From NCBI GenBank assembly GCA_944359885.1, contig CALVTC010000010.1, forward strand, positions 1-33,034: 33,034 nt of DNA. Direction: 5' to 3'. Each line of letters opens with the position of its first letter. Within the stretch, counting starts at the first letter, position 1. This DNA is from an uncultured Bacilli bacterium (GTDB taxonomy: Bacteria > Bacillota_I > Bacilli_A > RF39 > UBA660). Of the stretch, positions 4,799 through 30,626 are shown one piece after another. Under the pieces are notes generated by a model that was not told the DNA's origin, searched no databases, and was given only the letters and a program-made list of their open reading frames with translations. A program made the translations under genes and the position numbers.

Positions 4799-6169
4799 TT
4801 AGAAGTTTTTCCATACTCTTAGTTTATCCTGTTCTACTTTATAAATACCTAATATTTCATTTTTTTTGTTTTTAAAAATCACCTTATTTTTTATTTGATA
4901 TTGATTTGGTAGCTTTTGGCCATTTTTAATTTTCTTTTCCAAATCTTCATCTACTTGAATTACTGGAAAGTCTAATACTTCATCTATTGTATGGAGAGTT
5001 GCTTTTTTGTTTATAATTTCTTCTATAGTATTGGTCTTTTTTATATCTATTTTTCCTTGTTTTGTTCTAGTCAAAGTTGTCATCGTAGCGTAAGTATCTA
5101 GGGCAAGCCCGATATCTCTAATTAAACTTCTGATGTAGCAACCTTTTGTTACTAGAGTTTTTATCATAAAAGTGTCATTATCACTTGATAATAATTTGAT
5201 TTTTTTAATGGTTACTTCCTTTTTAGGTAGTTGAACTTCTTTGTTTTCTCTTGCATATTCATATAGTTTTTTTCCGTTTACTTTTACTGCAGAATAAATT
5301 GGTACTTCTTGTAGATAAGTTTTTTGAAAACTGTTGATTACTTTTTCTAAATCTTTCGATAAATCAACTGGTTTACTTTTTACTACTTGCCCTGTGATAT
5401 CTAGTGTATCCGTTTCTACTCCTAATAATACTCCAGCTACATATTCTTTATCTTCTGCTGTTAATAATTCTGCTATTTTAGTTGCTTGTCCTATTGTTAC
5501 AATTAAGACTCCTTCTGCTAGTGGATCTAGAGTACCTGTGTGTCCTACCTTACTTATACCAAAAATATTACTTATTTTATTTACTACATCAAATGATGTC
5601 ATACCTTTTTCTTTATTAATATAGATTACTGCAGAAAATTTTTTTAAATATTCTTCTAAGATCCAGTTGTTTTTTTTCATAATTAAAGCTGGTATTTCTC
5701 CTACATAACGGATGTGCCATGGTTCATAAGAATATCCTGTATACTGTTCTTTTCCCTTGGGATATCTTAAAATAAATCCAAACTGGGGTAGGCATTTTTC
5801 TATTTTTTTAAATATTTCTTCTTCATCTGAATTTTTTGTTACTAATTCTAAATCGATTGCTAGGCCTGTATGATGTTCACTCTTACCGGGAGATGCTACA
5901 TATTGTTCTGTATATTCTAATCCATATTGTTCTTTCGAATCTTCATATATTTTTTGTTGTTCTTCTATTGTTCTGTAAGCTGATGCTAGAGCAATTTCTA
6001 TATTTTTCGTCTTGAGATATTTTTTTAATTCTAAATATGCATGATAAGTTTTTTCTTCTATTTGACATGGTGTATTGTCTATTAATTTTGTATTTATTTT
6101 TGTTATATTTTTATAATAATTATCTTTTATTTTATTTTCTTTATTTACTAGTGTTAAATATTTTTTCAT
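4799..6169 (-). CDS. truB: Fusion of VanY-type M15 peptidase and TruB tRNA pseudouridine-55 synthase
   Basis: A 456-residue two-domain protein. Residues 1-177 form a complete M15B D-Ala-D-Ala carboxypeptidase-like domain. It has LVNKENK near the N-terminus, the ASAYRT motif (62-67), and zinc ligands H99 and D106 in SEHHTGLAID plus H152 in EPWHIRYVG, with E149 as the likely catalytic base. Residues about 178-456 form TruB: KGMTSFDVV (188-196), the catalytic Asp D215 in GHTGTLD, the KEYVAG strand and a C-terminal PUA-like region. TruB makes pseudouridine-55 in the tRNA T-loop. The peptidase half has no signal peptide or TM segment, so it would be cytosolic, unlike ordinary VanY enzymes. The junction (about 5638) lies at an A7 run, but removing or adding one A leaves TruB with no ATG start, so a real fusion is favoured. 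Confidence 0.9.
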   Translation of the reverse strand: MKKYLTLVNKENKIKDNYYKNITKINTKLIDNTPCQIEEKTYHAYLELKKYLKTKNIEIALASAYRTIEEQQKIYEDSKEQYGLEYTEQYVASPGKSEHHTGLAIDLELVTKNSDEEEIFKKIEKCLPQFGFILRYPKGKEQYTGYSYEPWHIRYVGEIPALIMKKNNWILEEYLKKFSAVIYINKEKGMTSFDVVNKISNIFGISKVGHTGTLDPLAEGVLIVTIGQATKIAELLTAEDKEYVAGVLLGVETDTLDITGQVVKSKPVDLSKDLEKVINSFQKTYLQEVPIYSAVKVNGKKLYEYARENKEVQLPKKEVTIKKIKLLSSDNDTFMIKTLVTKGCYIRSLIRDIGLALDTYATMTTLTRTKQGKIDIKKTNTIEEIINKKATLHTIDEVLDFPVIQVDEDLEKKIKNGQKLPNQYQIKNKVIFKNKKNEILGIYKVEQDKLRVWKNF

Positions 6170-20587: not shown

Positions 20588-21508
20588 TTACATCTTCGAT
20601 ATAGGAGATGTTTTTTTTGTTAAGAATTTTACTTTATCTTCTTCTACAAAATGATAGTTGGAATTTTCAATATATTCTGGGATTGGTTCTTCTACTTTTT
20701 GCCAAGATATCTTATCTTCTTTTGTTGTTAAAGAATAGTATTCCACTTCATTTTCATCTTTTGGTACTTGATACAAGAGATTTACCTTTTTATTTTCATT
20801 ATCATACAATACTAATCTTTTAAAATTTAAAGACTTCGCATCTTGATTCATTGTCTGTTTAATAGTTAATAAGAACAAGTCATTCGTTTCTTTTATACCT
20901 AGTGTTGAAAAATTTGTAGTATCTATAAAGAAATGAAATAACCTATTTGTAGTGATATTACTTTTTTCTTCTATTAATTCGTCTCTTACTAAGTGAAGAT
21001 ATTTTAAATATAAATTTTGTTTTGTATAATTTATATCATACATAGCTTTTTCTAATAAATATTCTCCATCATCTTCTCGTGTATAGATTTTTAAACCTCG
21101 AAATGGTAATCCCTTTTTTACATTTAGAAAATCATCTGTTCCATCAATAGGATCTACTTCAATTGTGGTACCATCCATTAACTGAGTGATAGAGTAACAA
21201 TGTGATAGTTCTCCATATGGCATGCTAATGTCATAATCCTCTTCTTTCGTAAGCAAACTATTTACGATATTACAATAAATATCACTAAAACTAGTACAAA
21301 CTACTTTTATATCTTCTAAATTTTCTATATCCAATTTACGTTCATATATTTCTATTTGTAATGGTTGGTCATCTATTGCCCAGTACCAACGGCAATCATA
21401 CTGAAAGACTTCACATAATTTTTTATAAATATATACTATTTTCCCTATCGTATCTAAATTTTGATAATTATTTTCTAATTTGCTTTTTAATATTTCTTTT
21501 AAATTCAT
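20588..21508 (-). CDS. Transglutaminase-fold cysteine enzyme, cytoplasmic
   Basis: A 306-residue protein without signal peptide or TM segment. A papain/transglutaminase-like triad can be read in order: C71 in VVCTSFSDIY, H103 in LSHCYSITQL and D119 in TIEVDPIDG, each followed by a plausible strand. Spacing between Cys, His and Asp fits the transglutaminase-like core, which includes proteases and amidases as well as cross-linking enzymes. The C-terminal half (about 165-306) has no recognised domain. The gene abuts the XRE gene tail to tail with no base between the stop codons. Its promoter is an extended -10 (21540-21532), and a CCCC/GGGG hairpin covers the ribosome binding site. The substrate is unknown. 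Confidence 0.65.
   Translation of the reverse strand: MNLKEILKSKLENNYQNLDTIGKIVYIYKKLCEVFQYDCRWYWAIDDQPLQIEIYERKLDIENLEDIKVVCTSFSDIYCNIVNSLLTKEEDYDISMPYGELSHCYSITQLMDGTTIEVDPIDGTDDFLNVKKGLPFRGLKIYTREDDGEYLLEKAMYDINYTKQNLYLKYLHLVRDELIEEKSNITTNRLFHFFIDTTNFSTLGIKETNDLFLLTIKQTMNQDAKSLNFKRLVLYDNENKKVNLLYQVPKDENEVEYYSLTTKEDKISWQKVEEPIPEYIENSNYHFVEEDKVKFLTKKTSPISKM
20590..20618 (+). terminator. Terminator of the XRE gene inside the convergent gene
   Basis: The stem ACATCT/AGATGT (20590-20595 and 20606-20611), followed by eight T residues, lies within the 3' coding end of the transglutaminase-fold gene. Confidence 0.65.
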
Positions 21509-21941: not shown

Positions 21942-21973
21942 ACTAAAAAAACAGAATGATTCTCACTCTGTTT
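21942..21973 (-). terminator. Terminator of type VII operon B
   Basis: An 11-bp stem with one G-U pair (21949-21959 and 21963-21973) and a 3-nt loop is followed by seven T residues on the minus strand. It overlaps the TGA stop of the DUF4176 gene. Confidence 0.8.
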
Positions 21974-22292
21974 CTAGGGCCTCTATTTGAAATCTTGGTT
22001 CTTTTTTTTCTTGATTTTGTTCTTTTTTGCTGGTTAGTGTTACTACTCTATCTAGGAAGTTATTAGCTTCTTCATCTTGATAACCTGAGAAATATACTTC
22101 TTTTATTTGGTTATGGTTAAAGACACAGGTGATATCAGAGCGGAGAACTCCTTCAGGAAAAACACATCCGCAGTAATCATACATCTTGTTTGGATTTTCT
22201 GGTGTCTTCATGCAATATCCTATAATCATTACCTTCTTTGTACCACCATTTAAAAGTACAACACTACCTAATGGTAAAACTTTTTTATCCAT
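21963..22292 (-). CDS. DUF4176 protein, last gene of type VII operon B
   Basis: A 109-residue small soluble protein of the DUF4176 family, which occurs in type VIIb secretion (LXG/ESX) loci; some members are thought to help target substrates. The family pattern is clear: LPLGSVVLLNGGTKKVMIIGY (7-27), YDYCGCVFPEG (39-49), FNHNQIKEVYFSGYQDEE (59-76). The C-terminus is charged and variable. It starts 18 bp after the large surface protein gene and ends in TGA, which shows that TGA is a stop codon here. It is a paralogue of the DUF4176 gene at 25254-25595, in the same position of the other operon. Confidence 0.88.
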   Translation of the reverse strand: MDKKVLPLGSVVLLNGGTKKVMIIGYCMKTPENPNKMYDYCGCVFPEGVLRSDITCVFNHNQIKEVYFSGYQDEEANNFLDRVVTLTSKKEQNQEKKEPRFQIEALETE

Positions 22293-22310
22293 TTTCTAAC
22301 CTCTTTTCCT

Positions 22311-23849
22311 TTATTCTAGTTCTTCTTTTTGATTTGAAATCTCTGGCATACCTTCTTCTATCTTTAGATCTTTTGGAGCTTCATCTAATACTAACTTATT
22401 TACATTACCAGCTTTATAACTTTTATCTGGGCTAGTATCTTCTTGATAGTTTCCAAGATATGAGAATGAGTCTTCTCCTTCTGAATTTTCATCTTCGTAT
22501 GTATTTTCTTTTTGTTTTTTATCTTTTATGTATTTTGCTCCAGCTACTGCAGCAGCTCCTGCGGCACCAACTCCTAAGACAATTGGAATAACATTTCCTC
22601 CATCATCTGTTGTTGTGGTTGTATTACTTGTTTCTGTTTCTTTATCAATACTAATTACATCTAAAGTCTCTCCACTATTATCTTTGATACCAGCATCACT
22701 ATCTGGTGCAGATGGTGTCGTAGTTGCAGCATTCTCATTGTTACTTGGAGTAGATGGGGTAACACCGTTATTACTATTTTGGTTATTGTATGAAGTGTTA
22801 TATCCACCATTATTAGTGTTCGTTTGTGAAGATGGTGGTGTTTCTTGGTTCGTATTTCCAGTTGTGTTATTTCCCTGTTGATTATTTGTATCTGGATCTG
22901 GTGTTGGTTTTACTGTTTCATCTTTATCAGCGTTTGTATTATCATCACCAGTATTATTATCATCTGTATTATTATTGTTCGTGTTGTTATTACCACTAGT
23001 ATTGTTATTTTCTCCAGTATTATTTGACTCATTATTTCCAGTACTTGGTTCCTCACTTGGTGTAGGATCTTTACTTGGCGTTTGTGTTTGTGGTGGCTCT
23101 TGTTCGGTTGATGATTCTACTTTGTTCTGAGTTTGTTGCTCAGGAGTATTAGTTGTTGTATTGGATTCTGGTGTTTCTACTCTATAAGAGTAATTGTTTG
23201 TTGCTGGTTGTTGATGATTTGTAGTAGTCGTTGCTGTAGAGGGTGATGTATTCTGTTGAGGAGGATCTTGTTGTACTTGTTCTTCTTCTGGTGCCATTAT
23301 ATTTTGTACCATAGATATTAATGATACCATCGTTCCCTTCACCGCAGTACCTCCAGTTGATTTTACTAGGCCATCCATCCATTCTTTTGTTTTATCATCG
23401 TATGCTTCTCCGTTAACAGATGAGATAAATCCTTCTATTTCTTCTGCATTTGTATGGAATTCGATATCACTCTGCTTGTGACTTACGTACATTTCACTTA
23501 ATTTATTTTCACCTTCTAGTCCAAGGATCTCATCAATTTTTGTTAGACCTGATAATACTTCTCCGCCTACACCAATATCAATATTCTCCCAGGTTTCTCC
23601 AATTTTTTTAACTTGAACCATGAATTCTCTATATGCTGTATTATTTTTAGATAACGCCGCCCAGTCACGATGTTTTGCAATGATACTATCTAGATAACCG
23701 TCATGTTTTTTACTTTCTTTTTTTAAATCATCATTTACTAAGTCCTGAATAATTAACCATTCATTATCTTTTTCCGAAGGAGCACATTCTTCTAATACTG
23801 TAGCAGATTGTTTTATTCTTTCATAATCAACATTACCAATGATTGCCAT
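22311..23849 (-). CDS. Type VII-associated surface protein B with TM and conserved tail
   Basis: A 512-residue protein with no signal peptide. Residues 1-190 are a mostly helical domain (with DWAALSKNN and ETWENIDIGVGGEV) that I do not recognise. Residues 190-385 are a low-complexity Thr/Asn/Pro/Gln/Glu linker. The pre-membrane motif IKDNSGETLDVISIDK (388-403) follows, then a Gly/Ala-rich TM segment (about 419-440) and a basic stop (KDKKQK). An acidic cytoplasmic tail carries YKAGNVNKLVLD (478-489). Basic residues after the TM place the tail inside and the N-terminus outside. With no signal peptide, export by the type VII system is the obvious route. The whole C-terminal module recurs in the protein at 25606-28563. 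The TAGGAGG site overlaps the stop of the gene before it. Confidence 0.75.
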   Translation of the reverse strand: MAIIGNVDYERIKQSATVLEECAPSEKDNEWLIIQDLVNDDLKKESKKHDGYLDSIIAKHRDWAALSKNNTAYREFMVQVKKIGETWENIDIGVGGEVLSGLTKIDEILGLEGENKLSEMYVSHKQSDIEFHTNAEEIEGFISSVNGEAYDDKTKEWMDGLVKSTGGTAVKGTMVSLISMVQNIMAPEEEQVQQDPPQQNTSPSTATTTTNHQQPATNNYSYRVETPESNTTTNTPEQQTQNKVESSTEQEPPQTQTPSKDPTPSEEPSTGNNESNNTGENNNTSGNNNTNNNNTDDNNTGDDNTNADKDETVKPTPDPDTNNQQGNNTTGNTNQETPPSSQTNTNNGGYNTSYNNQNSNNGVTPSTPSNNENAATTTPSAPDSDAGIKDNSGETLDVISIDKETETSNTTTTTDDGGNVIPIVLGVGAAGAAAVAGAKYIKDKKQKENTYEDENSEGEDSFSYLGNYQEDTSPDKSYKAGNVNKLVLDEAPKDLKIEEGMPEISNQKEELE

Positions 23850-23860
23850 GTTTCTTCCTC

Positions 23861-24379
23861 CTAAACTTTTCCTAATTCAATATTTACTTGTTCTAGTTTT
23901 GGTTCTAATGCCGTAATTGATTCTTGCGTTGTTTCTGCATACTGGCGATAATCAGCAGCAGTACTATATCGATCATAATATACACCTTGATTTTCTGCCA
24001 TTTTTGCTGCTTGTTCTAGAAAGTACTCTTTGGATGCTTTTAGTGCTTCTAGTTGTGCTTTTATTGCTGATTGTAACTTTAATAATTGTTCTCTTCTTTT
24101 TTCGGTTGCGGCAGTTTCTACTTCTTTTTCAAAGTTTACAAATTCTGTTAATTTTGATTCATAGGCAGTCATAATTTCTTGTGCTTTATTATACAGTGGA
24201 CTTACTCCGTCAAATATTAAGGCTTGTTTCGATAAACCACCTAAGGTCATCTCTAACTCTAAAGCGTCAATTCTTGGTTCTAATAGATTTTTTAGTCTTG
24301 AGTTGGCATCCCGAACCATTCCGACAGCATTTTCTACATTAACAAGTTCTGATATTTCTGTTTTCCAAGTGATTTTCAT
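23861..24379 (-). CDS. Helical protein of type VII operon B
   Basis: A 172-residue protein predicted to be almost fully alpha-helical, with heptad-like stretches (VNFEKEVETAATEKRREQLL, AIKAQLEALKASKEYFLEQA). It has no signal peptide and no TM segment. I recognise no family. It lies between the two WXG100-size genes and the surface protein gene, the same slot as the 132-residue protein in operon A, although the two share little obvious sequence. A chaperone or targeting partner for the downstream surface protein is an inference from the LXG-operon plan. An 87-bp spacer with two hairpins precedes it; a GGAGG site lies upstream of the ATG. Confidence 0.75.
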   Translation of the reverse strand: MKITWKTEISELVNVENAVGMVRDANSRLKNLLEPRIDALELEMTLGGLSKQALIFDGVSPLYNKAQEIMTAYESKLTEFVNFEKEVETAATEKRREQLLKLQSAIKAQLEALKASKEYFLEQAAKMAENQGVYYDRYSTAADYRQYAETTQESITALEPKLEQVNIELGKV

Positions 24380-24418
24380 AATCGGTTATCCTCCTTTTAC
24401 TTCAATGCGTTGCAAAAG

Positions 24419-24462
24419 CAAAGACAATCTTTGACTTTGCAATACACTGAAGTAGTGTATTG
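24419..24462. promoter_or_regulatory. Double hairpin between WXG and helical genes, operon B
   Basis: CAATACACT/AGTGTATTG (24440-24448 and 24454-24462) and CAAAGA/TCTTTG (24419-24424 and 24428-24433). On the minus (sense) strand no T run follows, so it is not a standard terminator for the operon. On the plus strand the larger hairpin ends in TTTTTT. Operon A has the same arrangement at 29002-29055. Confidence 0.65.
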
Positions 24463-24466
24463 TTTT

Positions 24467-24742
24467 TTATACGTCTTCTGCTTGCGTATTTTGCAATACT
24501 GCTCTTACGTTTGCAGATTGTTTCTTAAATGTTCTTATGAATTCTGGGAATTCTTCTGCAAATGGTGCCCATTTATTCATAAAATTAGTAGCAGATTGTC
24601 CTTCCCATACTTTAGGATTATTTACATTTTCCGTAATTAATTCATTCATGGTGTTTAAAGCTTTTGTTATTTGATCTGTTAATTGTTCTATTGTATTAAT
24701 AGATGTTTCTATTTCAGAATAGACTAATTTATTTACGCTCAT
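24467..24742 (-). CDS. WXG100/ESX family protein (B2)
   Basis: A 91-residue helix-turn-helix hairpin protein of the ESAT-6/WXG100 family, the small dimeric substrates and chaperones of type VII secretion. The turn motif is W46-E-G48 in KVWEGQSA, preceded and followed by amphipathic helices of about 40 residues. The C-terminal helix (FIRTFKKQSANVRAVLQNTQ) aligns with that of the paralogue at 29061-29336. Second gene of operon B, 14 bp after B1; it probably forms a heterodimer with B1. It has an AAGGAG ribosome binding site. Confidence 0.88.
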   Translation of the reverse strand: MSVNKLVYSEIETSINTIEQLTDQITKALNTMNELITENVNNPKVWEGQSATNFMNKWAPFAEEFPEFIRTFKKQSANVRAVLQNTQAEDV

Positions 24743-24756
24743 AGGTATCTCCTTTC

Positions 24757-25056
24757 TTATTCGAACGCTGCTTTACTTCTATTTGCAGCATCTTCAAAAT
24801 CATCTGCTTTTGTGTTTACGATATTTTCAAATTCTACCATCATAGCATCGCCATCCATTAGATTTGGATATTTGCTGTCAAATAGAGCTTTGAACTCTTC
24901 GTAAGTACCAGTTTCTTCACTGGTCCATATCTCATGAATTCTTTCTGTTAGTGCTTTAATTTGTTCAACACCATCTTTAAATTGTTTTTCTTGAGTGGCA
25001 ACATCACTTGCTAATACTCTCATATCCTCTAATGAGAATGATAATCCGTCTGCCAT
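24757..25056 (-). CDS. WXG100-like protein (B1)
   Basis: A 99-residue ESX-size helical protein with the conserved Trp in the interhelical turn (HEIWTSEETGTYEEFKALFD, W44) but without the Gly two residues later. The first helix (FKDGVEQIKALTERIHEIW) and the second (KADDFEDAANRSKAAFE) fit the WXG100 fold. First gene of operon B, with an AGGAGGTGA site right after the conserved leader hairpin. It is the positional counterpart of the gene at 29355-29645. Confidence 0.82.
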   Translation of the reverse strand: MADGLSFSLEDMRVLASDVATQEKQFKDGVEQIKALTERIHEIWTSEETGTYEEFKALFDSKYPNLMDGDAMMVEFENIVNTKADDFEDAANRSKAAFE

Positions 25057-25075
25057 TCTTTCACCTCCTAAATAT

Positions 25076-25105
25076 TAAGAATATTTCTACCCTTTTATAT
25101 TCTTA
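25076..25105 (-). promoter_or_regulatory. Conserved 5'-terminal leader hairpin, operon B
   Basis: On the minus strand TAAGAATAT (25105... read to 25097 as its complement) pairs perfectly with ATATTCTTA (25084-25076) around the 12-nt loop AAAAGGGTAGAA, six nt after the -10. The same stem with loop AAAGGGTAAGG precedes operon A. It is followed closely by the AGGAGGTGA site. Confidence 0.7.
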
Positions 25106-25112
25106 TAAGTCT

Positions 25113-25142
25113 ATTATAGAGTGTTTTGACAATTTTAGTCAA
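25113..25142 (-). promoter_or_regulatory. Promoter of type VII operon B
   Basis: Minus strand TTGACT (25142-25137), an 18-bp spacer and a perfect TATAAT (25118-25113). Upstream lie an inverted repeat AAGTTTACT/AGTAAACTT (25154-25162 and 25183-25191) and the 12-mer TTTACTATTTTT (25157-25168), which is shared with operon A. Confidence 0.75.
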
Positions 25143-25227
25143 GAAAGTTTCAGAAGTTTACTATTTTTCACGTTGAAATAAAAGTAAACTTGACTCAATT
25201 TCAAGTCTTTTATAAGCGTGTATATTA

Positions 25228-25257
25228 AATAAAAGTCAAAGACGAATCTTTGACTAA
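25228..25257 (-). terminator. Terminator of type VII operon A
   Basis: A 9-bp perfect stem AGTCAAAGA/TCTTTGACT (25234-25242 and 25247-25255). On the minus strand it has a TTCG tetraloop and a T-rich tail, and it overlaps the stop codon of the DUF4176 gene. Confidence 0.8.
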
Positions 25258-25595
25258 TTTTTTTCTTGAGATATTCTTTCATTACGGATTTTTAGACCAC
25301 CATTTAATATTCTAGATAATTCTTTTTGTTTATCTGTTACATATCCCATGTATAAAACCTTATCGATTTGATCATGATTAAATCCATTTATTTTATCACT
25401 TACTAATAGACCTTCTGGATATGGACATGCACCATATTCATACATTTTTCCTTTTGCGTCTATTTTCTTTCCATTTTCATAGACTTCTCCAATTGGATAA
25501 ATACAGTAGTTTATGATCATCATAGGATGATTTCCTCCTTTTACTGTTACTACTGTACCGATGGGTAAAAATCTTTCTTCTTTTTGTTCTGGCAT
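25254..25595 (-). CDS. DUF4176 protein, last gene of type VII operon A
   Basis: A 113-residue DUF4176 protein. Visible family pattern: FLPIGTVVTVKGGNHPMMII (9-28), YEYGACPYPEGLLVSD (53-68), FNHDQIDKVLYMGYVTDKQ (72-90). It has an insertion (YENGKKIDAKGK) compared with the paralogue at 21963-22292. Its AGGAGG site overlaps the stop of the 985-residue surface protein gene (10 bp between genes), so translation is coupled. The family is associated with type VIIb secretion loci. Confidence 0.88.
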   Translation of the reverse strand: MPEQKEERFLPIGTVVTVKGGNHPMMIINYCIYPIGEVYENGKKIDAKGKMYEYGACPYPEGLLVSDKINGFNHDQIDKVLYMGYVTDKQKELSRILNGGLKIRNERISQEKN

Positions 25596-25605
25596 TTTTT
25601 ACCTC

Positions 25606-28563
25606 CTATTCTTGTTCATTGTTCTTTGGGCCAATAATATCACTATCTTCATTCATCTTTACATCAACAGTATCATCCAATATTAATTTATTTACAGTAC
25701 CAGCTTGATATTTTTCGTTCTGATAGATTGGTTCTTCTGGTATATGAGGAGCAAAATTATCTTGCTCTTGTTTTTCCTCTTCATCCTCATAGTATTCTTG
25801 TTCTTTACTTCTATCAGATTTCTTCTTAATATAATAAGCTCCTCCTGCGATAGCGGCACCAGCTGCTCCTACTCCTAAAATTGTAGGGATTGCGCTTCCA
25901 CCGTCATTAGATGAAGTAGTTGTATTAGTTGGGGGTTTATCAATACTAATTATATCTAGGGTTTCTCCACTATTATCTTTGATTTCCAAATCATTTTCTG
26001 GCATTGATGGTGATGGAGAATCTTGTGGTACTTTTATATTAGAAATTGTTGAATTTGTTGTATTATTTGGTACATAGTATCCTGAATTTGTATTGCCTGA
26101 ATTATTTGTATTTGATATAGGTGGATTATTTGTATTACCGTTACTATTACCATTATTTGTATTTCCAGGGTTATTGATTATATTGTCATTATTTGTATTT
26201 CCAGGGTTATTGATTATATTGTCATTATTTATATTGCCTGGGTTACCTTCTCCAGTATTACTTTCTCCTTGTTGTGGAGTTTCTATATTACCAGGGTTAT
26301 CTGGTGCTGGTTGTGGTGTAGTTGGATTCGTATCGGAAGGTGGAGTTATAGATGGATTTTCTCCTTCTATATCCACAGTTGGTTGTGAAGGTTGATCTTG
26401 TGTTGCAGATGGTGCTTGTGGTATTTCTTCTGGTACTATGTTATTTACTGTTGTTTCTACCTTTCCTTGAATATTTGGTGTTATAGTAGTTTGATTATTA
26501 TTAGAATTACCTGGTGAGGTAATAGTTTCTGATTGTTCTTGCTGTGGTGGTTGTATATGTTCCTCTGTTTGAGAATTACTTTTTAAAGTATTGATTGCTG
26601 TTTGCATTTCTTCTGTTTTTTCTGGATCTAAAATAACTTCTGGATTAGAATCTCTTATTTCCGTTATATCATCTCCAAGTAATTCATAGGCATAATTATT
26701 TATATTATTCTGTCTATAGATTTTGGATGCTTCTTCTTGTTGAATTTGCCAAGTACCACCTGCTAGTCCTGCCGTTACACCTACTACTGGATTGTTTAGA
26801 ATTTCTTTTCCTTTTTCTAGGCCAGTAGTTGCTACATTTTTTAAATTATTTAAAGTTTGATTAGATCCCGGGGTTAAACGTTCTGGTTCTAATTGAGATA
26901 CTAGCTGCTGAGTTGATTTTTTTCTGAGACTTTTTTCGTAATTTGATATTTGTGCTAAAAAATCATGTCCTACTCCGCCATCTTGAGTACCATATAATTT
27001 TGTAATTATTTTTTTACCTTCTGTTGCGGTTATTTTACCATCTTTTATTGCCGTAATAACTTCGTCTCCCGATTTAAATACATTGGTTCCTGTATCTAAT
27101 ACTTGATTCGTTTGACTTACTTTTAATTGAGGTTGAGAAGTAGTTGTCGTTGTGGTATTAGAGATATTTGTTGATTTTAATACATCATCACTTTTATCTA
27201 AAATCTCATCTCCTGTGTTCTTTAAATTTATATGGTCTTTTATTGTTTTTATTGGATGTTTTACTATTTCTTTTACTTTTTCAAAATTTCCTACTGCAAA
27301 GTTTTTTACACTCGTTAGCTTGGAGGTTACTTTATTTATGATACCATTGGATTGAAGAGATCGATTTACTAAATATTCGTCTCTTACTGTACTAAATTGT
27401 TTTAATTGGTCCATTGCTTTTTTATCTATTGTGCTTCCTTGTGTGGTTTTTAATGTCTTTACTCCCTCTTCTAGGAAGTCATCGCTAGTACTTTTTAAAT
27501 TTATGTGATCTTTTATTGTTTTTATTGGGTGTTTAAATATTTCCTTTGCTTTTTCTAAATTTCCTACCGCAAAGTTTTTTACACCTGTCAATTTAGAACC
27601 TACTTTATCAATAATACTATTTGATGTTGCGATATTATTTACTACTGGATCATCTACTGTTGTAAGAAGATTTAATTTATCGTCAGCATTTGTTAATAAT
27701 TTTACTCCATCATCGGCATAACTTACTCCATTTTTGAATACTTTTGTAGATAATTTGTTCATGAACTTAGAATTTGCTACTTTATCTATTACTTTTCCTC
27801 CTAGGTAAGCAGTTCCTGCTTGATACAAGGCCTCGCCTGCTCCATGTGCTGAAGCACTTTGAAATGTTTCTCCTGCTTGTAAGTGTATTTCGGTACCTTC
27901 TCCTAAACCACTTATTCCAGATACGGCAGCAGTTGATGCGGTCGCTGAAAGATTACTTAGGAATGGTAATTGAGTTGCACCGAGTCCAACTACAATGTAT
28001 CCTACAATTTCTCCGCCGACTTTGATATAGCTTGCGGTCGTACTATCATGTTTAAAAATACTATTTTGGTTAATTCCTTGAAGGAACCCTGTTTCGTATT
28101 GTTCATAAAAAAAGTCTCCTACATGATCCTTTTCTATAAAAGCAGCTACATCATTTTGAAAGTCATTCGCTCCCACTAGACCTGCTCCCCATCCTAGGAG
28201 AGTTGCACCTCCGTCAATAATAGATTCTCCTGTTGCAAATATTCCTTCTACTGCTTTTGCACTAATCATACCCGCAGTTCCCCAGAATTTATCCCAGTCA
28301 CTAGCGTTATTGTAGGCATCAATTTCTTCTTGTTTACTAGTCACTAGTTCAATTAATTCATCAATAGCACTTAGACTATCCGTTACTAGTGAGGAAAAAA
28401 CATCTGATGATAGTGTTCCTACATACGTGGTAAACCCTTTGGCACTCATTATTTTGTTTACCCCAGCAGCTAATGCTTCTTCTGTTCCAGATAGACGTGT
28501 TTTGGCAAAGTTTAATTCATCTATGCCATCAAACACACCAACTTCATCCATCATTACTTGCAT
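25606..28563 (-). CDS. Large type VII-associated surface protein A with TM and conserved tail
   Basis: A 985-residue protein with no signal peptide. Residues 1-95 are a helical, WXG-like N-terminal domain. Residues 95-260 form a Gly/Ala-rich hydrophobic region that could insert into membranes. Two tandem repeats follow (317-372 and 408-466, core VKNFAVGN-EK-KEI-KHPIKTIKDHINL) and a degenerate third copy (571-597). Residues 660-855 are an Asn/Pro/Thr linker with a 12-residue repeat. The end is the shared module: IKDNSGETLDIISIDK (861-876), TM (about 889-912), KKK stop and an acidic tail with KYQAGTVNKLILD (951-963). Positive-inside topology puts the long N-terminal part outside. No toxin domain or LXG motif is recognised. 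The TAGGAGG site overlaps the stop of the gene before it. It is the largest product of operon A. Confidence 0.78.
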   Translation of the reverse strand: MQVMMDEVGVFDGIDELNFAKTRLSGTEEALAAGVNKIMSAKGFTTYVGTLSSDVFSSLVTDSLSAIDELIELVTSKQEEIDAYNNASDWDKFWGTAGMISAKAVEGIFATGESIIDGGATLLGWGAGLVGANDFQNDVAAFIEKDHVGDFFYEQYETGFLQGINQNSIFKHDSTTASYIKVGGEIVGYIVVGLGATQLPFLSNLSATASTAAVSGISGLGEGTEIHLQAGETFQSASAHGAGEALYQAGTAYLGGKVIDKVANSKFMNKLSTKVFKNGVSYADDGVKLLTNADDKLNLLTTVDDPVVNNIATSNSIIDKVGSKLTGVKNFAVGNLEKAKEIFKHPIKTIKDHINLKSTSDDFLEEGVKTLKTTQGSTIDKKAMDQLKQFSTVRDEYLVNRSLQSNGIINKVTSKLTSVKNFAVGNFEKVKEIVKHPIKTIKDHINLKNTGDEILDKSDDVLKSTNISNTTTTTTSQPQLKVSQTNQVLDTGTNVFKSGDEVITAIKDGKITATEGKKIITKLYGTQDGGVGHDFLAQISNYEKSLRKKSTQQLVSQLEPERLTPGSNQTLNNLKNVATTGLEKGKEILNNPVVGVTAGLAGGTWQIQQEEASKIYRQNNINNYAYELLGDDITEIRDSNPEVILDPEKTEEMQTAINTLKSNSQTEEHIQPPQQEQSETITSPGNSNNNQTTITPNIQGKVETTVNNIVPEEIPQAPSATQDQPSQPTVDIEGENPSITPPSDTNPTTPQPAPDNPGNIETPQQGESNTGEGNPGNINNDNIINNPGNTNNDNIINNPGNTNNGNSNGNTNNPPISNTNNSGNTNSGYYVPNNTTNSTISNIKVPQDSPSPSMPENDLEIKDNSGETLDIISIDKPPTNTTTSSNDGGSAIPTILGVGAAGAAIAGGAYYIKKKSDRSKEQEYYEDEEEKQEQDNFAPHIPEEPIYQNEKYQAGTVNKLILDDTVDVKMNEDSDIIGPKNNEQE
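26161..26232. repeat. 36-bp tandem repeat in the linker of surface protein A
   Basis: Two adjacent copies of a 36-bp unit (26161-26196 and 26197-26232, one difference at the end) plus partial copies on both sides. They encode a 12-residue Asn/Pro-rich repeat (NPGNTNNDNIIN). Such repeats change in number by slippage. Confidence 0.85.
27166..27615. repeat. Imperfect 273-bp-offset duplication in surface protein A
   Basis: Segments 27448-27615 and 27166-27342 encode the two tandem repeats of the surface protein, each about 56-59 residues long with a 91-residue period. They remain clearly similar at DNA level (for example around the codons for HPIKTIKDHINLK). Confidence 0.75.
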
Positions 28564-28574
28564 TTTTATTCCTC

Positions 28575-28973
28575 CTATTGACTAGTTTCTTTTTCCTTTG
28601 CTTTAGCTACTGCTTGATTAAATTCATCCTGAGCAATATTGTTTAGTTGTACTTGCAAACGATTGTATGCATCGATTGCTGATGCTCGAATACTATCTGT
28701 AATTTCTGTTATAGATTGTTTTACCCCTAAGATAGCGTCTCCATAACTTTCTATTGTTGGTTGTAATGTTGCTCCGTCTATTTGGAGAACTTGTGCATCT
28801 AAATTGCTAGCGGCACTATTTACGACTTCTCCTGCTCTGGTAAAATCTTCTGCTGCCTCATCAATTTCATCACATCCCGCATTTACTGTTGTAATATCGA
28901 TATAGTTAGCAGCGGACTCTGCAGTTACGCGAATTCCGTAAGTGGCATTGGTTAGTGTAATTGCTTCTGTCAT
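28575..28973 (-). CDS. Helical protein of type VII operon A
   Basis: A 132-residue Ala-rich helical protein (MTEAITLTNATYGIRVT start, then AAEDFTRAGEVVNSAASNLD and IRASAIDAYNRLQVQLNNIA). It has no signal peptide or TM segment. The size and composition resemble small helical LXG-associated proteins that help target type VIIb substrates, but I cannot name the family with confidence. The start is ATG 28973, preceded by AGAGGTGAGA; an upstream ATG at 29003 lies within a hairpin arm and would cross the ribosome binding site. The stop overlaps the ribosome binding site of the 985-residue protein gene. It is the positional counterpart of the gene at 23861-24379. Confidence 0.78.
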   Translation of the reverse strand: MTEAITLTNATYGIRVTAESAANYIDITTVNAGCDEIDEAAEDFTRAGEVVNSAASNLDAQVLQIDGATLQPTIESYGDAILGVKQSITEITDSIRASAIDAYNRLQVQLNNIAQDEFNQAVAKAKEKETSQ

Positions 28974-29001
28974 CTTCTCACCTCTTTTTAATATACAGTG
29001 C

Positions 29002-29055
29002 ATAGTAAATAGAGAAAGACTCTCTACTTACTATACATTGCATAGTGCAATGTAT
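29002..29055. promoter_or_regulatory. Double hairpin between WXG and helical genes, operon A
   Basis: A 14-bp stem with one wobble (29002-29015 and 29021-29034) and a perfect 10-bp stem ATACATTGCA/TGCAATGTAT (29033-29042 and 29046-29055). On the sense strand no T run follows. It matches the arrangement at 24419-24462 in operon B by position but not by sequence. Confidence 0.65.
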
Positions 29056-29060
29056 TATTT

Positions 29061-29336
29061 TTAGTTTTCTTGATCATATCTTAGTGCTTGTTCTACAGCT
29101 AATCTTAAATTGGCAGCAGATAATTTCATATCTTCCATAGCAGCTGGTACGTCAGCACTATAATATGTTTGCCAATTTTCTCTTACTACTTCTGACCAGC
29201 TTGTTTGAATTCCTTCTGGAATGTTTCTTTTAATAGCAGCATCTAAGACTTGCATATCATTTTCAATTTGTGAAACGATGCTATCAATTTGCGCGGCATC
29301 ATCTGTTGCGGCACCTGGATTGATTGTAATATTCAT
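29061..29336 (-). CDS. WXG100-like protein (A2)
   Basis: A 91-residue ESX-size helical hairpin protein. The turn holds W47 (IQTSWSEVVRENWQTYY), with Glu where Gly normally stands (WxE). The second helix (DMKLSAANLRLAVEQAL) resembles that of the paralogue at 24467-24742 (KKQSANVRAVLQN). Second gene of operon A, 18 bp after A1, with an AGGAGGG ribosome binding site. It is presumably a heterodimer partner of A1. Confidence 0.82.
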   Translation of the reverse strand: MNITINPGAATDDAAQIDSIVSQIENDMQVLDAAIKRNIPEGIQTSWSEVVRENWQTYYSADVPAAMEDMKLSAANLRLAVEQALRYDQEN

Positions 29337-29354
29337 ATGTTACCCTCCTTTATA

Positions 29355-29645
29355 TTAATGCATTCCTGCTTTTGTACTTGATATTAAATCTCCAAATTTT
29401 GTAGTTTGAAGTCCCATATATTCTGCAGCTTCATCAATGGTATTTGCTAAACCATTAAGAATGCTTTCTTTTGCTTGGAATTTTGTTAGTAATTCCACTG
29501 CTAGGTCTCCTTGAATATCTCCACTTGTAATTTCATTAATTAAATTTGTTAATCTAGCTAAATTTTCCTTATAAGACTCTCCAGCTGTTTCTAATGCTTT
29601 TCTTAAATCATTTAGTGCAGCTTCATCTACATGAATCATTGCCAT
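29355..29645 (-). CDS. WXG100-like protein (A1)
   Basis: A 96-residue ESX-size helical protein. The interhelical motif reads I44-Q-G46 (SGDIQGDLAVELLTKF), keeping the Gly but not the Trp, so A1 and A2 each hold one half of the WXG motif. Both flanking helices are amphipathic. First gene of operon A, with the AGGAGGTGA site right after the conserved leader hairpin. It is the positional counterpart of the gene at 24757-25056. Confidence 0.8.
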   Translation of the reverse strand: MAMIHVDEAALNDLRKALETAGESYKENLARLTNLINEITSGDIQGDLAVELLTKFQAKESILNGLANTIDEAAEYMGLQTTKFGDLISSTKAGMH

Positions 29646-29662: not shown

Positions 29663-29691
29663 TAAGAATATCCTTACCCTTTATATTCTTA
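29663..29691 (-). promoter_or_regulatory. Conserved 5'-terminal leader hairpin, operon A
   Basis: TAAGAATAT pairs perfectly with ATATTCTTA around the 11-nt loop AAAGGGTAAGG. It begins six nt after the -10, just as in operon B (25076-25105), with the same stem and the same loop core AAAGGGTA. Confidence 0.7.
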
Positions 29692-29698
29692 TAAATTT

Positions 29699-29728
29699 AT
29701 CATATCAATCTGGTAACGTTATCGTCAA
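29699..29728 (-). promoter_or_regulatory. Promoter of type VII operon A
   Basis: Minus strand TTGACG (29728-29723), an 18-bp spacer and TATGAT (29704-29699). Same spacing and same distance to the leader hairpin as in operon B. Confidence 0.7.
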
Positions 29729-29849: not shown

Positions 29850-30206
29850 ATGAGAAATAATAATTGTATTCTGAATCTACTTAAAGTAATTGATTTACTT
29901 CAAAAGAATTCTACTACTGGTTGCTCTTTAGAACTTGGTTGTGATAGGCCATATCTTGGGCCTAGTAGTACAATGATTTGTTATAATACTCGTCCTATTT
30001 CTCTATACAAAAAAGATGGTAGTCTTTTCCAAGTTGCGAATTATAGTGTGTTTCGTGTAGAAAAAGTCGAAAATGATTGTGTTGTTTTACAAGCTTTATC
30101 TGGTACAAGCCCTAATTTTGTCGCAACTGGAGAGATGGTTACTATTTCTGCTAATTGTTTTTGTGTTATTCGATGTTTTCCTGATACTTCTATCACCTGT
30201 TTATAG
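29850..30206 (+). CDS. CotY/CotZ-family spore coat protein
   Basis: A 118-residue Cys-rich protein (nine Cys). The family core is visible: SVFRVEKVENDCVVLQAL (66-83), then VTISANCFCVIRCFPDTSI (97-115). Bacillus CotZ has the same pattern (FRVERVxxxCATL, then VDLDCFCAINC). CotY and CotZ build the outer crust or exosporium base layer of endospores through disulphide-linked lattices. The N-terminal part (ILNLLKVIDLLQKN, then CDRPYLGP and CYNTRPISLY) is shared with the gene downstream. First of two genes, with an AAGAGGTGG site and a sigma-K-like promoter. It diverges from type VII operon A. Confidence 0.85.
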   Translation: MRNNNCILNLLKVIDLLQKNSTTGCSLELGCDRPYLGPSSTMICYNTRPISLYKKDGSLFQVANYSVFRVEKVENDCVVLQALSGTSPNFVATGEMVTISANCFCVIRCFPDTSITCL

Positions 30207-30221
30207 AAAGGAGGAGATGAT

Positions 30222-30626
30222 ATGAGTTGTGGAGATGTAAAAAAAGATTGTGGTTGTCTTGCGGATATTTTGAAAAAAATATTATTGCTTCAAAGACAGG
30301 ACTACGATAATGAAAGTTATAATGGATGTGATAAACCTTACTTAGGACCTATCTGTAATACTATTTGTTATAATACTCGTCCTATCATGTTATATAATTG
30401 TTGTACTGGTACTCCTTGGACTTTCTCTTATACTGTAGGTAATCAAACTTCTACTTCTGATGTATTCCGTATTGAAGCTATTGATGATTGTTGCTGCACA
30501 TGTCGTATTCTATATTTAGACACTACTACTAATCGATATCTTGGTACTTCAGAATTTTTCACTATTAACTTAGATTGTGTTGGTGCTCTTCGCTGTCTTC
30601 CAGATACATTTATTGATTTATGTTAA
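30222..30626 (+). CDS. CotY/CotZ-family spore coat protein
   Basis: A 134-residue paralogue of the gene before it, with 15 Cys including a CCC cluster (90-92). Shared motifs are CDKPYLGP (36-43), ICYNTRPIMLY (48-58), VFRIEAIDDC (81-90) and the C-terminal FTINLDCVGALRCLPDTFI (113-131). It starts 15 bp after the first gene with an AAAGGAGGAG site, so the two are one operon and probably co-assemble in the spore's outer layer. It is followed by a strong terminator. Confidence 0.85.
   Translation: MSCGDVKKDCGCLADILKKILLLQRQDYDNESYNGCDKPYLGPICNTICYNTRPIMLYNCCTGTPWTFSYTVGNQTSTSDVFRIEAIDDCCCTCRILYLDTTTNRYLGTSEFFTINLDCVGALRCLPDTFIDLC

What the first reader, a model, noticed from the sequence alone, without database searches (positions are those of the whole stretch)
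21963..29645. Twin five-gene type VII operons with identical layout and no secretion machinery
Two back-to-back operons on the minus strand have the same order: WXG-like 1, WXG-like 2, double-hairpin spacer, helical protein, large TM-anchored surface protein, DUF4176, terminator. Operon A is 29645-25254 and operon B is 25056-21963. The small proteins and the DUF4176 proteins are paralogous in matching slots; the helical proteins and the N-terminal domains of the surface proteins have diverged strongly. This looks like a duplicated cassette in which an effector or surface domain was exchanged while the export kit was kept. It differs from usual LXG operons because the large product has no LXG motif and ends in a TM segment plus a cytoplasmic tail. 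WXG100 and DUF4176 families are known from type VIIb loci; the cassette as a unit is, to my knowledge, not described.
Basis: partly seen in the sequence, partly recalled or inferred. Interest (0 to 1): 0.8.

Follow-up and report, generated by a model that had tools for sequence, protein, structure and literature searches.

The report
Membrane-anchored type VII export cassettes
These gut bacteria carry two old, side-by-side gene cassettes that look built to push a long protein out through a stripped-down type VII secretion system and leave it anchored in the cell membrane, a variant of the known toxin-export modules in which the toxin is replaced by a membrane anchor.

Summary
Operons A (29645-25254) and B (25056-21963) share gene order, promoter, a 5' leader hairpin, an intercistronic hairpin and a terminator. 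Matching slots are paralogous by profile comparison. B1 and B2 match EsxA/EsxB structures, DUF4176 is certain, and the large proteins share an anchor and tail (45% over 190 residues) but have unrelated N-terminal modules.

Three corrections. (1) Machinery exists: a full EssC lies on contig C21 of the same genome. No EssB was found over cut-off in 16 genomes of the genus or in 145 sampled from the family. (2) This is no recent duplication: the A and B DUF4176 proteins form separate groups across several genera, and the same twin sits in the same chromosomal slot in another genus. (3) The layout resembles known LXG modules (Lap1, Lap2, cargo, DUF4176/Ltc), with the toxin replaced by a disordered linker, membrane segment and conserved tail.

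Best reading: EssC exports each large protein N-terminus first; its membrane segment stops transfer, leaving it displayed on the surface. Export and topology are inferred; structure prediction was uninformative. The leader hairpin tracks the cassettes and the intercistronic element covaries strongly. New variant of a known kind.

The parts
29699..29728 (-). operon A promoter-like site (TTGACG-18-TATGAT)
   Evidence: aligned with the sites before the other cassettes
29664..29690 (-). operon A 5' leader hairpin AAGAATAT-AAAGGGTAAGG-ATATTCTT, at the presumed transcript start
29355..29645 (-). A1, 96 aa helical small protein, paralogue of the WXG100 protein B1
29061..29336 (-). A2, 91 aa helical small protein (W-S-D/E in place of W-x-G), paralogue of B2
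28974..29060 (-). intercistronic element A: short hairpin and long hairpin that share one strand
28575..28973 (-). A3, 132 aa helical partner protein (ATG with ribosome site; the 142-aa ORF starts further up)
25606..28563 (-). A4, 985 aa large protein: helical N-terminal module, Gly/Ala-rich region, N/T/P-rich linker, membrane segment, acidic tail
25837..25899 (-). A4 predicted membrane segment (about residues 889-909), followed by Lys-rich flank and 69-residue acidic tail
25254..25595 (-). A5, DUF4176 (Ltc-type chaperone family) protein
   Evidence: Pfam 1.1e-19
25234..25255 (-). operon A terminator-like hairpin
25113..25142 (-). operon B promoter-like site (TTGACT-18-TATAAT)
25077..25104 (-). 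operon B 5' leader hairpin
24757..25056 (-). B1, 99 aa WXG100-family protein (profile matches S. aureus EsxA 2.7e-7)
24467..24742 (-). B2, 91 aa WXG100-family protein with W-E-G hinge
24380..24466 (-). intercistronic element B
23861..24379 (-). B3, 172 aa helical partner protein, one of a family that precedes each large protein or cell-wall hydrolase in slot variants
22311..23849 (-). B4, 512 aa large protein: N-terminal module homologous to that of NlpC/P60 hydrolases, T/N-rich linker, membrane segment, acidic tail ending EELE
22536..22592 (-). B4 predicted membrane segment (about residues 420-438)
21963..22292 (-). B5, DUF4176 protein
   Evidence: Pfam 2.5e-28
21947..21975 (-). operon B terminator-like hairpin

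Best explanation
Each operon is a self-contained export cassette of a stripped-down type VII system. Two WXG100-type small proteins and the helical partner (A3/B3) bind the helical N-terminal module of the large protein and deliver it to EssC, encoded elsewhere in the genome. DUF4176 (Ltc type) holds the disordered part of the large protein in the cytoplasm until export. EssC pushes the N-terminus out; the long Asn/Thr/Pro-rich linker spans the wall; the single membrane segment acts as a stop-transfer. The product ends N-out/C-in, displaying its N-terminal module on the surface and keeping a conserved acidic tail inside. A and B display different N-terminal modules. A 5' leader hairpin and an intercistronic hairpin probably set transcript stability and the ratio of small proteins to cargo. 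Shown here: gene content, homologies, presence of EssC, lack of a detectable EssB, conserved tail, synteny, the co-occurrence statistics and RNA pairing. Inferred: complex formation, export route, topology, surface display and the RNA roles.
For: Full-length EssC in the same genome (C21:6894-10742, 1012 bits) and in 15 of 16 genus members. In the family, DUF4176 occurs in 35 of 57 EssC-positive and 3 of 88 EssC-negative genomes (Fisher p 3e-15), and the anchor tail in 13 of 57 and 4 of 88 (p 0.001); these tests ignore phylogeny. The B4 N-terminal module is homologous (97%, 5e-11) to that of NlpC/P60 cell-wall hydrolases in the same slot, each preceded by a B3-type partner. B1 and B2 profiles match EsxA and EsxB structures. 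Published LXG modules have the same parts: Lap1 and Lap2 bind the N-terminal domain and are needed for export (PMC9600955), and DUF4176/Ltc binds a disordered region and stays in the cytoplasm (summarised in PMC13355648). No Sec signal was seen at the N-terminus by inspection and no LPxTG was found. Lys/Arg follow the membrane segment, which by the positive-inside rule favours N-out. The tail has invariant residues across A and B.
Against: No experiment shows export or topology. AlphaFold models of the A4 and B4 N-termini were weak (mean pLDDT 60 and 70) with no significant PDB match. The A4 N-terminal module resembles WXG100 only faintly (72%, 3e-5). Two genomes with convincing cassettes, G122 and G502 (both 95% complete), show no EssC at E 1e-100. 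The Lap1-type export motif is seen in some B1 orthologues (YTxAE) but not in the window's B1. The A4 membrane segment is only moderately hydrophobic.
Confidence: 0.55

Rival explanations
1. The large proteins are parts of the secretion apparatus itself: wall-spanning components that do the job of EsaA or TsdI in a type VII system that has no detectable EssB, rather than cargo.
For: EssB is not found in the genus or in the family sample and no EssA/EsaA-like gene was recognised beside the core EssC; 15 of 16 genus members carry at least one large protein, and the one without it (G005) also lacks a full EssC. Published T7SSd/e/j have a large protein with a C-terminal membrane helix proposed to span the envelope (PMC11217815).
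Against: TsdI has a Sec signal peptide, none is seen here. N-terminal modules differ between A and B, genomes use A, B or both, and most EssC-positive genomes of the family have no tail by this profile. The B4 N-terminal module is the one carried by NlpC/P60 hydrolases, as expected of cargo.
Confidence: 0.23
2. Ordinary LXG-type toxin modules: the large protein is an antibacterial toxin, for instance the Gly/Ala-rich part of A4 as a membrane-active domain, and the anchor is incidental.
For: Gene order and DUF4176 match LXG modules; A4 has a Gly/Ala-rich region after the N-terminal module; second EssC loci in sister genomes carry toxin-like cargo, e.g. an ADP-ribosyltransferase.
Against: No immunity gene in either operon, no toxin domain, strongly conserved anchor and tail, cassettes nearly fixed in the genus at one slot, unlike polymorphic toxins.
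Confidence: 0.1
3. The large proteins stay inside (N-in), inserted by their C-terminal membrane segment without type VII export, and the WXG-like proteins are only cytoplasmic partners.
For: No export has been shown; cassettes occur in two near-complete genomes without detected EssC.
Against: Lys-rich flank lies on the C-terminal side of the segment, favouring C-in; Asn/Thr/Pro-rich linkers are typical of wall-spanning surface proteins; strong DUF4176-EssC association.
Confidence: 0.1

Closest known systems
LXG effector modules of T7SSb (S. intermedius telC/telD, S. aureus tspA, GBS bltA)
   Same: Small helical proteins, then a large cargo with a helical N-terminal module, then DUF4176/Ltc; one operon; dependence on EssC in trans is possible.
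   Different: No LXG domain, no toxin or immunity gene; three small helical proteins; cargo ends in linker, membrane segment and conserved acidic tail; two RNA elements; twin arrangement in a fixed slot.
T7SSb core (EssC, EssB, EssA, EsaA, EsaB, EsxA)
   Same: EssC with TIGR03928 score over cut-off.
   Different: EssB/YukC not detected in genus or family sample; core EssC gene is followed only by an 85-aa candidate EsaB and two small helical proteins.
T7SSd/e/j with TsxI proteins (Garrett et al. 2024, PMC11217815)
   Same: Large protein with C-terminal membrane helix linked to an EssC of the FHA type; no EssB.
   Different: TsdI has a Sec signal peptide and Ig-like domains and sits with a kinase in the EssC locus; here no Sec signal, and the cassettes sit apart from EssC.
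LPXTG sortase-anchored surface proteins
   Same: Disordered wall-spanning linker and C-terminal hydrophobic segment.
   Different: No LPxTG, long conserved cytoplasmic tail, no signal peptide.

Membership tests
WXG100 (PF06013) | profile match over curated cut-off | tested here: not met
   B2 25.6 bits against 27.3; B1 16.3; A1, A2 no call. 12 of 13 B1 relatives match at E<=0.1, best 8.5e-11.
WXG100 (PF06013) | homology to solved WXG100 proteins | tested here: met
   B1 profile to EsxA 2.7e-7; B2 profile to EsxA/EsxB 5e-4. A1/A2 only indirectly, through B1/B2.
WXG100 (PF06013) | W-x-G hinge | tested here: inconclusive
   B2 has WEG; A2 WSE, B1 WTS, A1 no W.
LXG effector module | LXG domain (PF04740) on the large protein | tested here: not met
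   No match to A4 or B4.
LXG effector module | DUF4176/Ltc gene in the operon (in many modules) | tested here: met
LXG effector module | Lap1 FxxxD export motif | tested here: inconclusive
   YTxAE near the end of some B1 relatives, not in the window's B1.
LXG effector module | C-terminal toxin domain and immunity gene | tested here: not met
   None in either operon by Pfam or by gene content.
T7SSb | EssC ATPase | tested here: met
T7SSb | EssB/YukC (PF10140) | tested here: not met
   0 of 16 genus genomes; 0 of 145 family genomes over cut-off
T7SSb | EssA, EsaA | not tested
   Only the neighbourhood of EssC was read; no profile search was left.
T7SSb | EsaB/YukD | tested here: inconclusive
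   85-aa gene after EssC; only weak ubiquitin-like hits (0.0076) and no PDB match
T7SSd/e/j TsxI protein | Sec signal peptide plus C-terminal membrane helix | tested here: not met
   Membrane segment present, N-terminus lacks a hydrophobic signal by inspection; no signal-peptide program was run.
Known RNA families (Rfam 15) | match over gathering score for leader or spacer hairpin | tested here: not met

The most novel reading that the evidence does not exclude
A family-wide type VII system without EssB uses the system to install, rather than release, large proteins: membrane-anchored, wall-spanning products that stay attached through a conserved cytoplasmic tail and act as its surface arm, with expression set by a dedicated 5' leader and a strand-sharing intercistronic RNA element found with these cassettes.
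Probability: 0.3. Interest if true: 0.75.

Novelty: new variant of a known kind. Interest (0 to 1): 0.55.

Why it matters
Characterised LXG cargo of type VII systems is released from the cell. A cassette that pairs the LXG export kit with a stop-transfer anchor would show the system can also build the cell surface, and an EssC that works without a detectable EssB would bear directly on which parts are essential. The conserved tail gives a concrete candidate binding site for the DUF4176 chaperone. The two RNA elements give a handle for finding such cassettes in uncultured gut Bacilli.

Tried and rejected
Recent duplication was rejected: the DUF4176 tree separates A and B across several genera. 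Assembly artefact was rejected: the twin recurs in G002, G007 and in G455 of another genus. No type VII machinery was rejected. Sortase anchoring was rejected: no LPxTG. Led nowhere: Pfam and NCBIfam on A1-A3 and B3; PDB profile searches for A1, A2 and B3; AlphaFold of A4 and B4 N-termini and fold search; tail scan of the GTDB 220 contigs, which found nothing, although a second scan with the slot gene c11 shows that sister genomes are held there, so that scan missed known members; Rfam. My first pair count on the leader was off by one column and was redone.
Full report
What is there. The window is the whole of contig C10 of a 1.37 Mb, 98-contig metagenome-assembled genome estimated 73% complete. 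Records of its sister genomes are titled uncultured Bacilli, Erysipelotrichaceae, Bacillales and Tenericutes bacteria; where a host is named it is mostly a gut sample of goat, sheep, deer, cattle or yak. Both operons are present exactly as described. DUF4176 is certain in both. B1 and B2 are WXG100 proteins by profile: B1 matches S. aureus EsxA at 2.7e-7 and B2 matches EsxA/EsxB at about 5e-4; B2 has a true W-E-G hinge. A1 and A2 are assigned only by profile comparison to B1 and B2 (94% each), with the crossed comparisons much weaker. A3 and B3 are remote relatives (78%).

The large proteins. A4 (985 aa) and B4 (512 aa) align only at the C-terminus (45% over 190 aa). The shared part is an Asn/Thr/Pro-rich linker, the motif LDVISIDK, a Gly/Ala-rich membrane segment followed by Lys or Arg, and an acidic tail of nearly 70 residues with YxAGxxNxLxLD and a terminal EELE or similar; 23 columns are invariant over 14 sequences. 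In other genera the membrane segment, a Tyr and a few acidic positions persist. The N-terminal modules of A4 and B4 show no relation. The B4 module is homologous to the one on NlpC/P60 cell-wall hydrolases that sit in the same slot in sister genomes (NlpC/P60 3.4e-5), and each of these is preceded by a B3-type partner. I read this as evidence that the module plus partner is an export signal. AlphaFold did not settle the fold.

The machinery. A full EssC lies on another contig (C21:6894-10742), followed by an 85-aa gene that may be EsaB (not confirmed) and two small helical proteins. This core locus is syntenic through the genus. EssB/YukC was not detected in any of 16 genus genomes and not over cut-off in 145 family genomes. 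EssA and EsaA were not searched by profile. Some genus members have a second EssC locus with large LXG-like cargo. G005 lacks a full EssC, the anchor tail and the leader together, but it is 89% complete.

Distribution and history. In the genus, 15 of 16 genomes have the anchor tail. The cassettes sit in one slot, between a divergent pair of CotZ-like spore-coat genes and a conserved 103-aa gene next to a histidine kinase. G004, G006, G012 and, as far as its contig shows, G015 have A; G003, G008, G010 and G011 have B; G001, G009 and G013 have B variants with extra genes; G000, G002, G007 and probably G014 (small contigs) have both. G455 of another genus has the same twin in the same slot, and several family members have an empty slot. 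DUF4176 proteins of A and B form separate groups across several genera (support 97/84 and 90/78). So the pair is old, and the slots have been kept or lost since.

Co-occurrence. In 145 family genomes DUF4176 is present in 35 of 57 with EssC and 3 of 88 without (p 3e-15). The tail is present in 13 of 57 and 4 of 88 (p 0.001). These tests ignore phylogeny. G122 and G502 have cassettes without detected EssC, which counts against the model or reflects incomplete assemblies.

RNA elements. All cassettes of the genus share a promoter and a leader hairpin AAGAATAT...ATATTCTT placed at the presumed transcript start. The pattern occurs 18 times in 16 genomes, with none from the reversed control pattern. 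Sixteen of the 18 places lie at cassette starts in loci I read; the other two, in G013 and G015, were not read through and those cassettes are broken by contig ends. With a looser pattern, 25 of 27 first genes of cassettes in several genera have it, against 9 of 1968 other genes, four of which are first genes of variant cassettes. Stem pairing is 97.6%, but with little covariation, so its structure rests on conservation. The intercistronic element between genes 2 and 3 is stronger: the long helix is 96.3% paired with both-sided changes in 13 of 22 pairs, against at most 7 when the partner is slid; the short helix, which uses the same middle strand, is 97.9% paired with both-sided changes in 4 of 9 pairs. 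The two cannot form together. No Rfam family reached its gathering score. Their roles, stability of the message and the ratio of small proteins to cargo, are inference.

Comparison with what is known. LXG modules have Lap1, Lap2, an LXG toxin and often DUF4176 (PMC9600955, PMC11481500, PMC11322744). A 2026 paper summarises DUF4176 (Ltc) proteins as chaperones that bind a disordered region and remain in the cytoplasm (PMC13355648); the primary paper was not held. The present cassettes meet the layout but not the LXG domain, toxin or immunity features, so I do not file them as LXG modules; they plausibly work like them. T7SSd/e/j have envelope-spanning proteins with a C-terminal helix but with a Sec signal (PMC11217815). 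I found no description of this cassette in the papers searched, which cover only open-licence papers.

Verdict. The most likely function is type VII export of a membrane-anchored surface protein by EssC encoded in trans. It is a new variant of a known kind; the unusual points are the anchored cargo, the lack of a detectable EssB across a family, and the two RNA elements.

Noticed in passing
window 4799-6169 (-): One 456-aa reading frame joins a VanY D-Ala-D-Ala carboxypeptidase domain (3.9e-35) to a TruB pseudouridine synthase (8.1e-48), an odd fusion.
   Followed up: partly
[quoted passage not shown]
   Followed up: partly
window 29850-30626 (+): Two CotZ-like spore-coat genes (1.7e-11 and 6e-12) diverge from the cassette and mark its slot in many family genomes.
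   Followed up: yes
window 20588-21508 (-): A 306-aa protein with Cys/His/Asp motifs like transglutaminase-type proteases (by eye, no Pfam match); weakly similar to the C-terminal part of large proteins encoded near EssC in L050 and L080.
   Followed up: partly
L053 2123-4444 (G008): Second EssC locus with a 773-aa protein carrying an ADP-ribosyltransferase domain (2e-26) next to DUF4176.
   Followed up: no
L112 (G122) and L226 (G502): Complete-looking cassettes in 95%-complete genomes in which no EssC was found.
   Followed up: partly
L222, L223, L232: B3-like partner domain in proteins of 542-551 aa next to a large protein with a C-terminal membrane segment, at other places in family genomes.
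   Followed up: no
L048, L054, L056, L061: Slot variants with NlpC/P60 hydrolases and a 425-aa protein sharing the B4-type N-terminal module, each with its own B3-type partner.
   Followed up: partly
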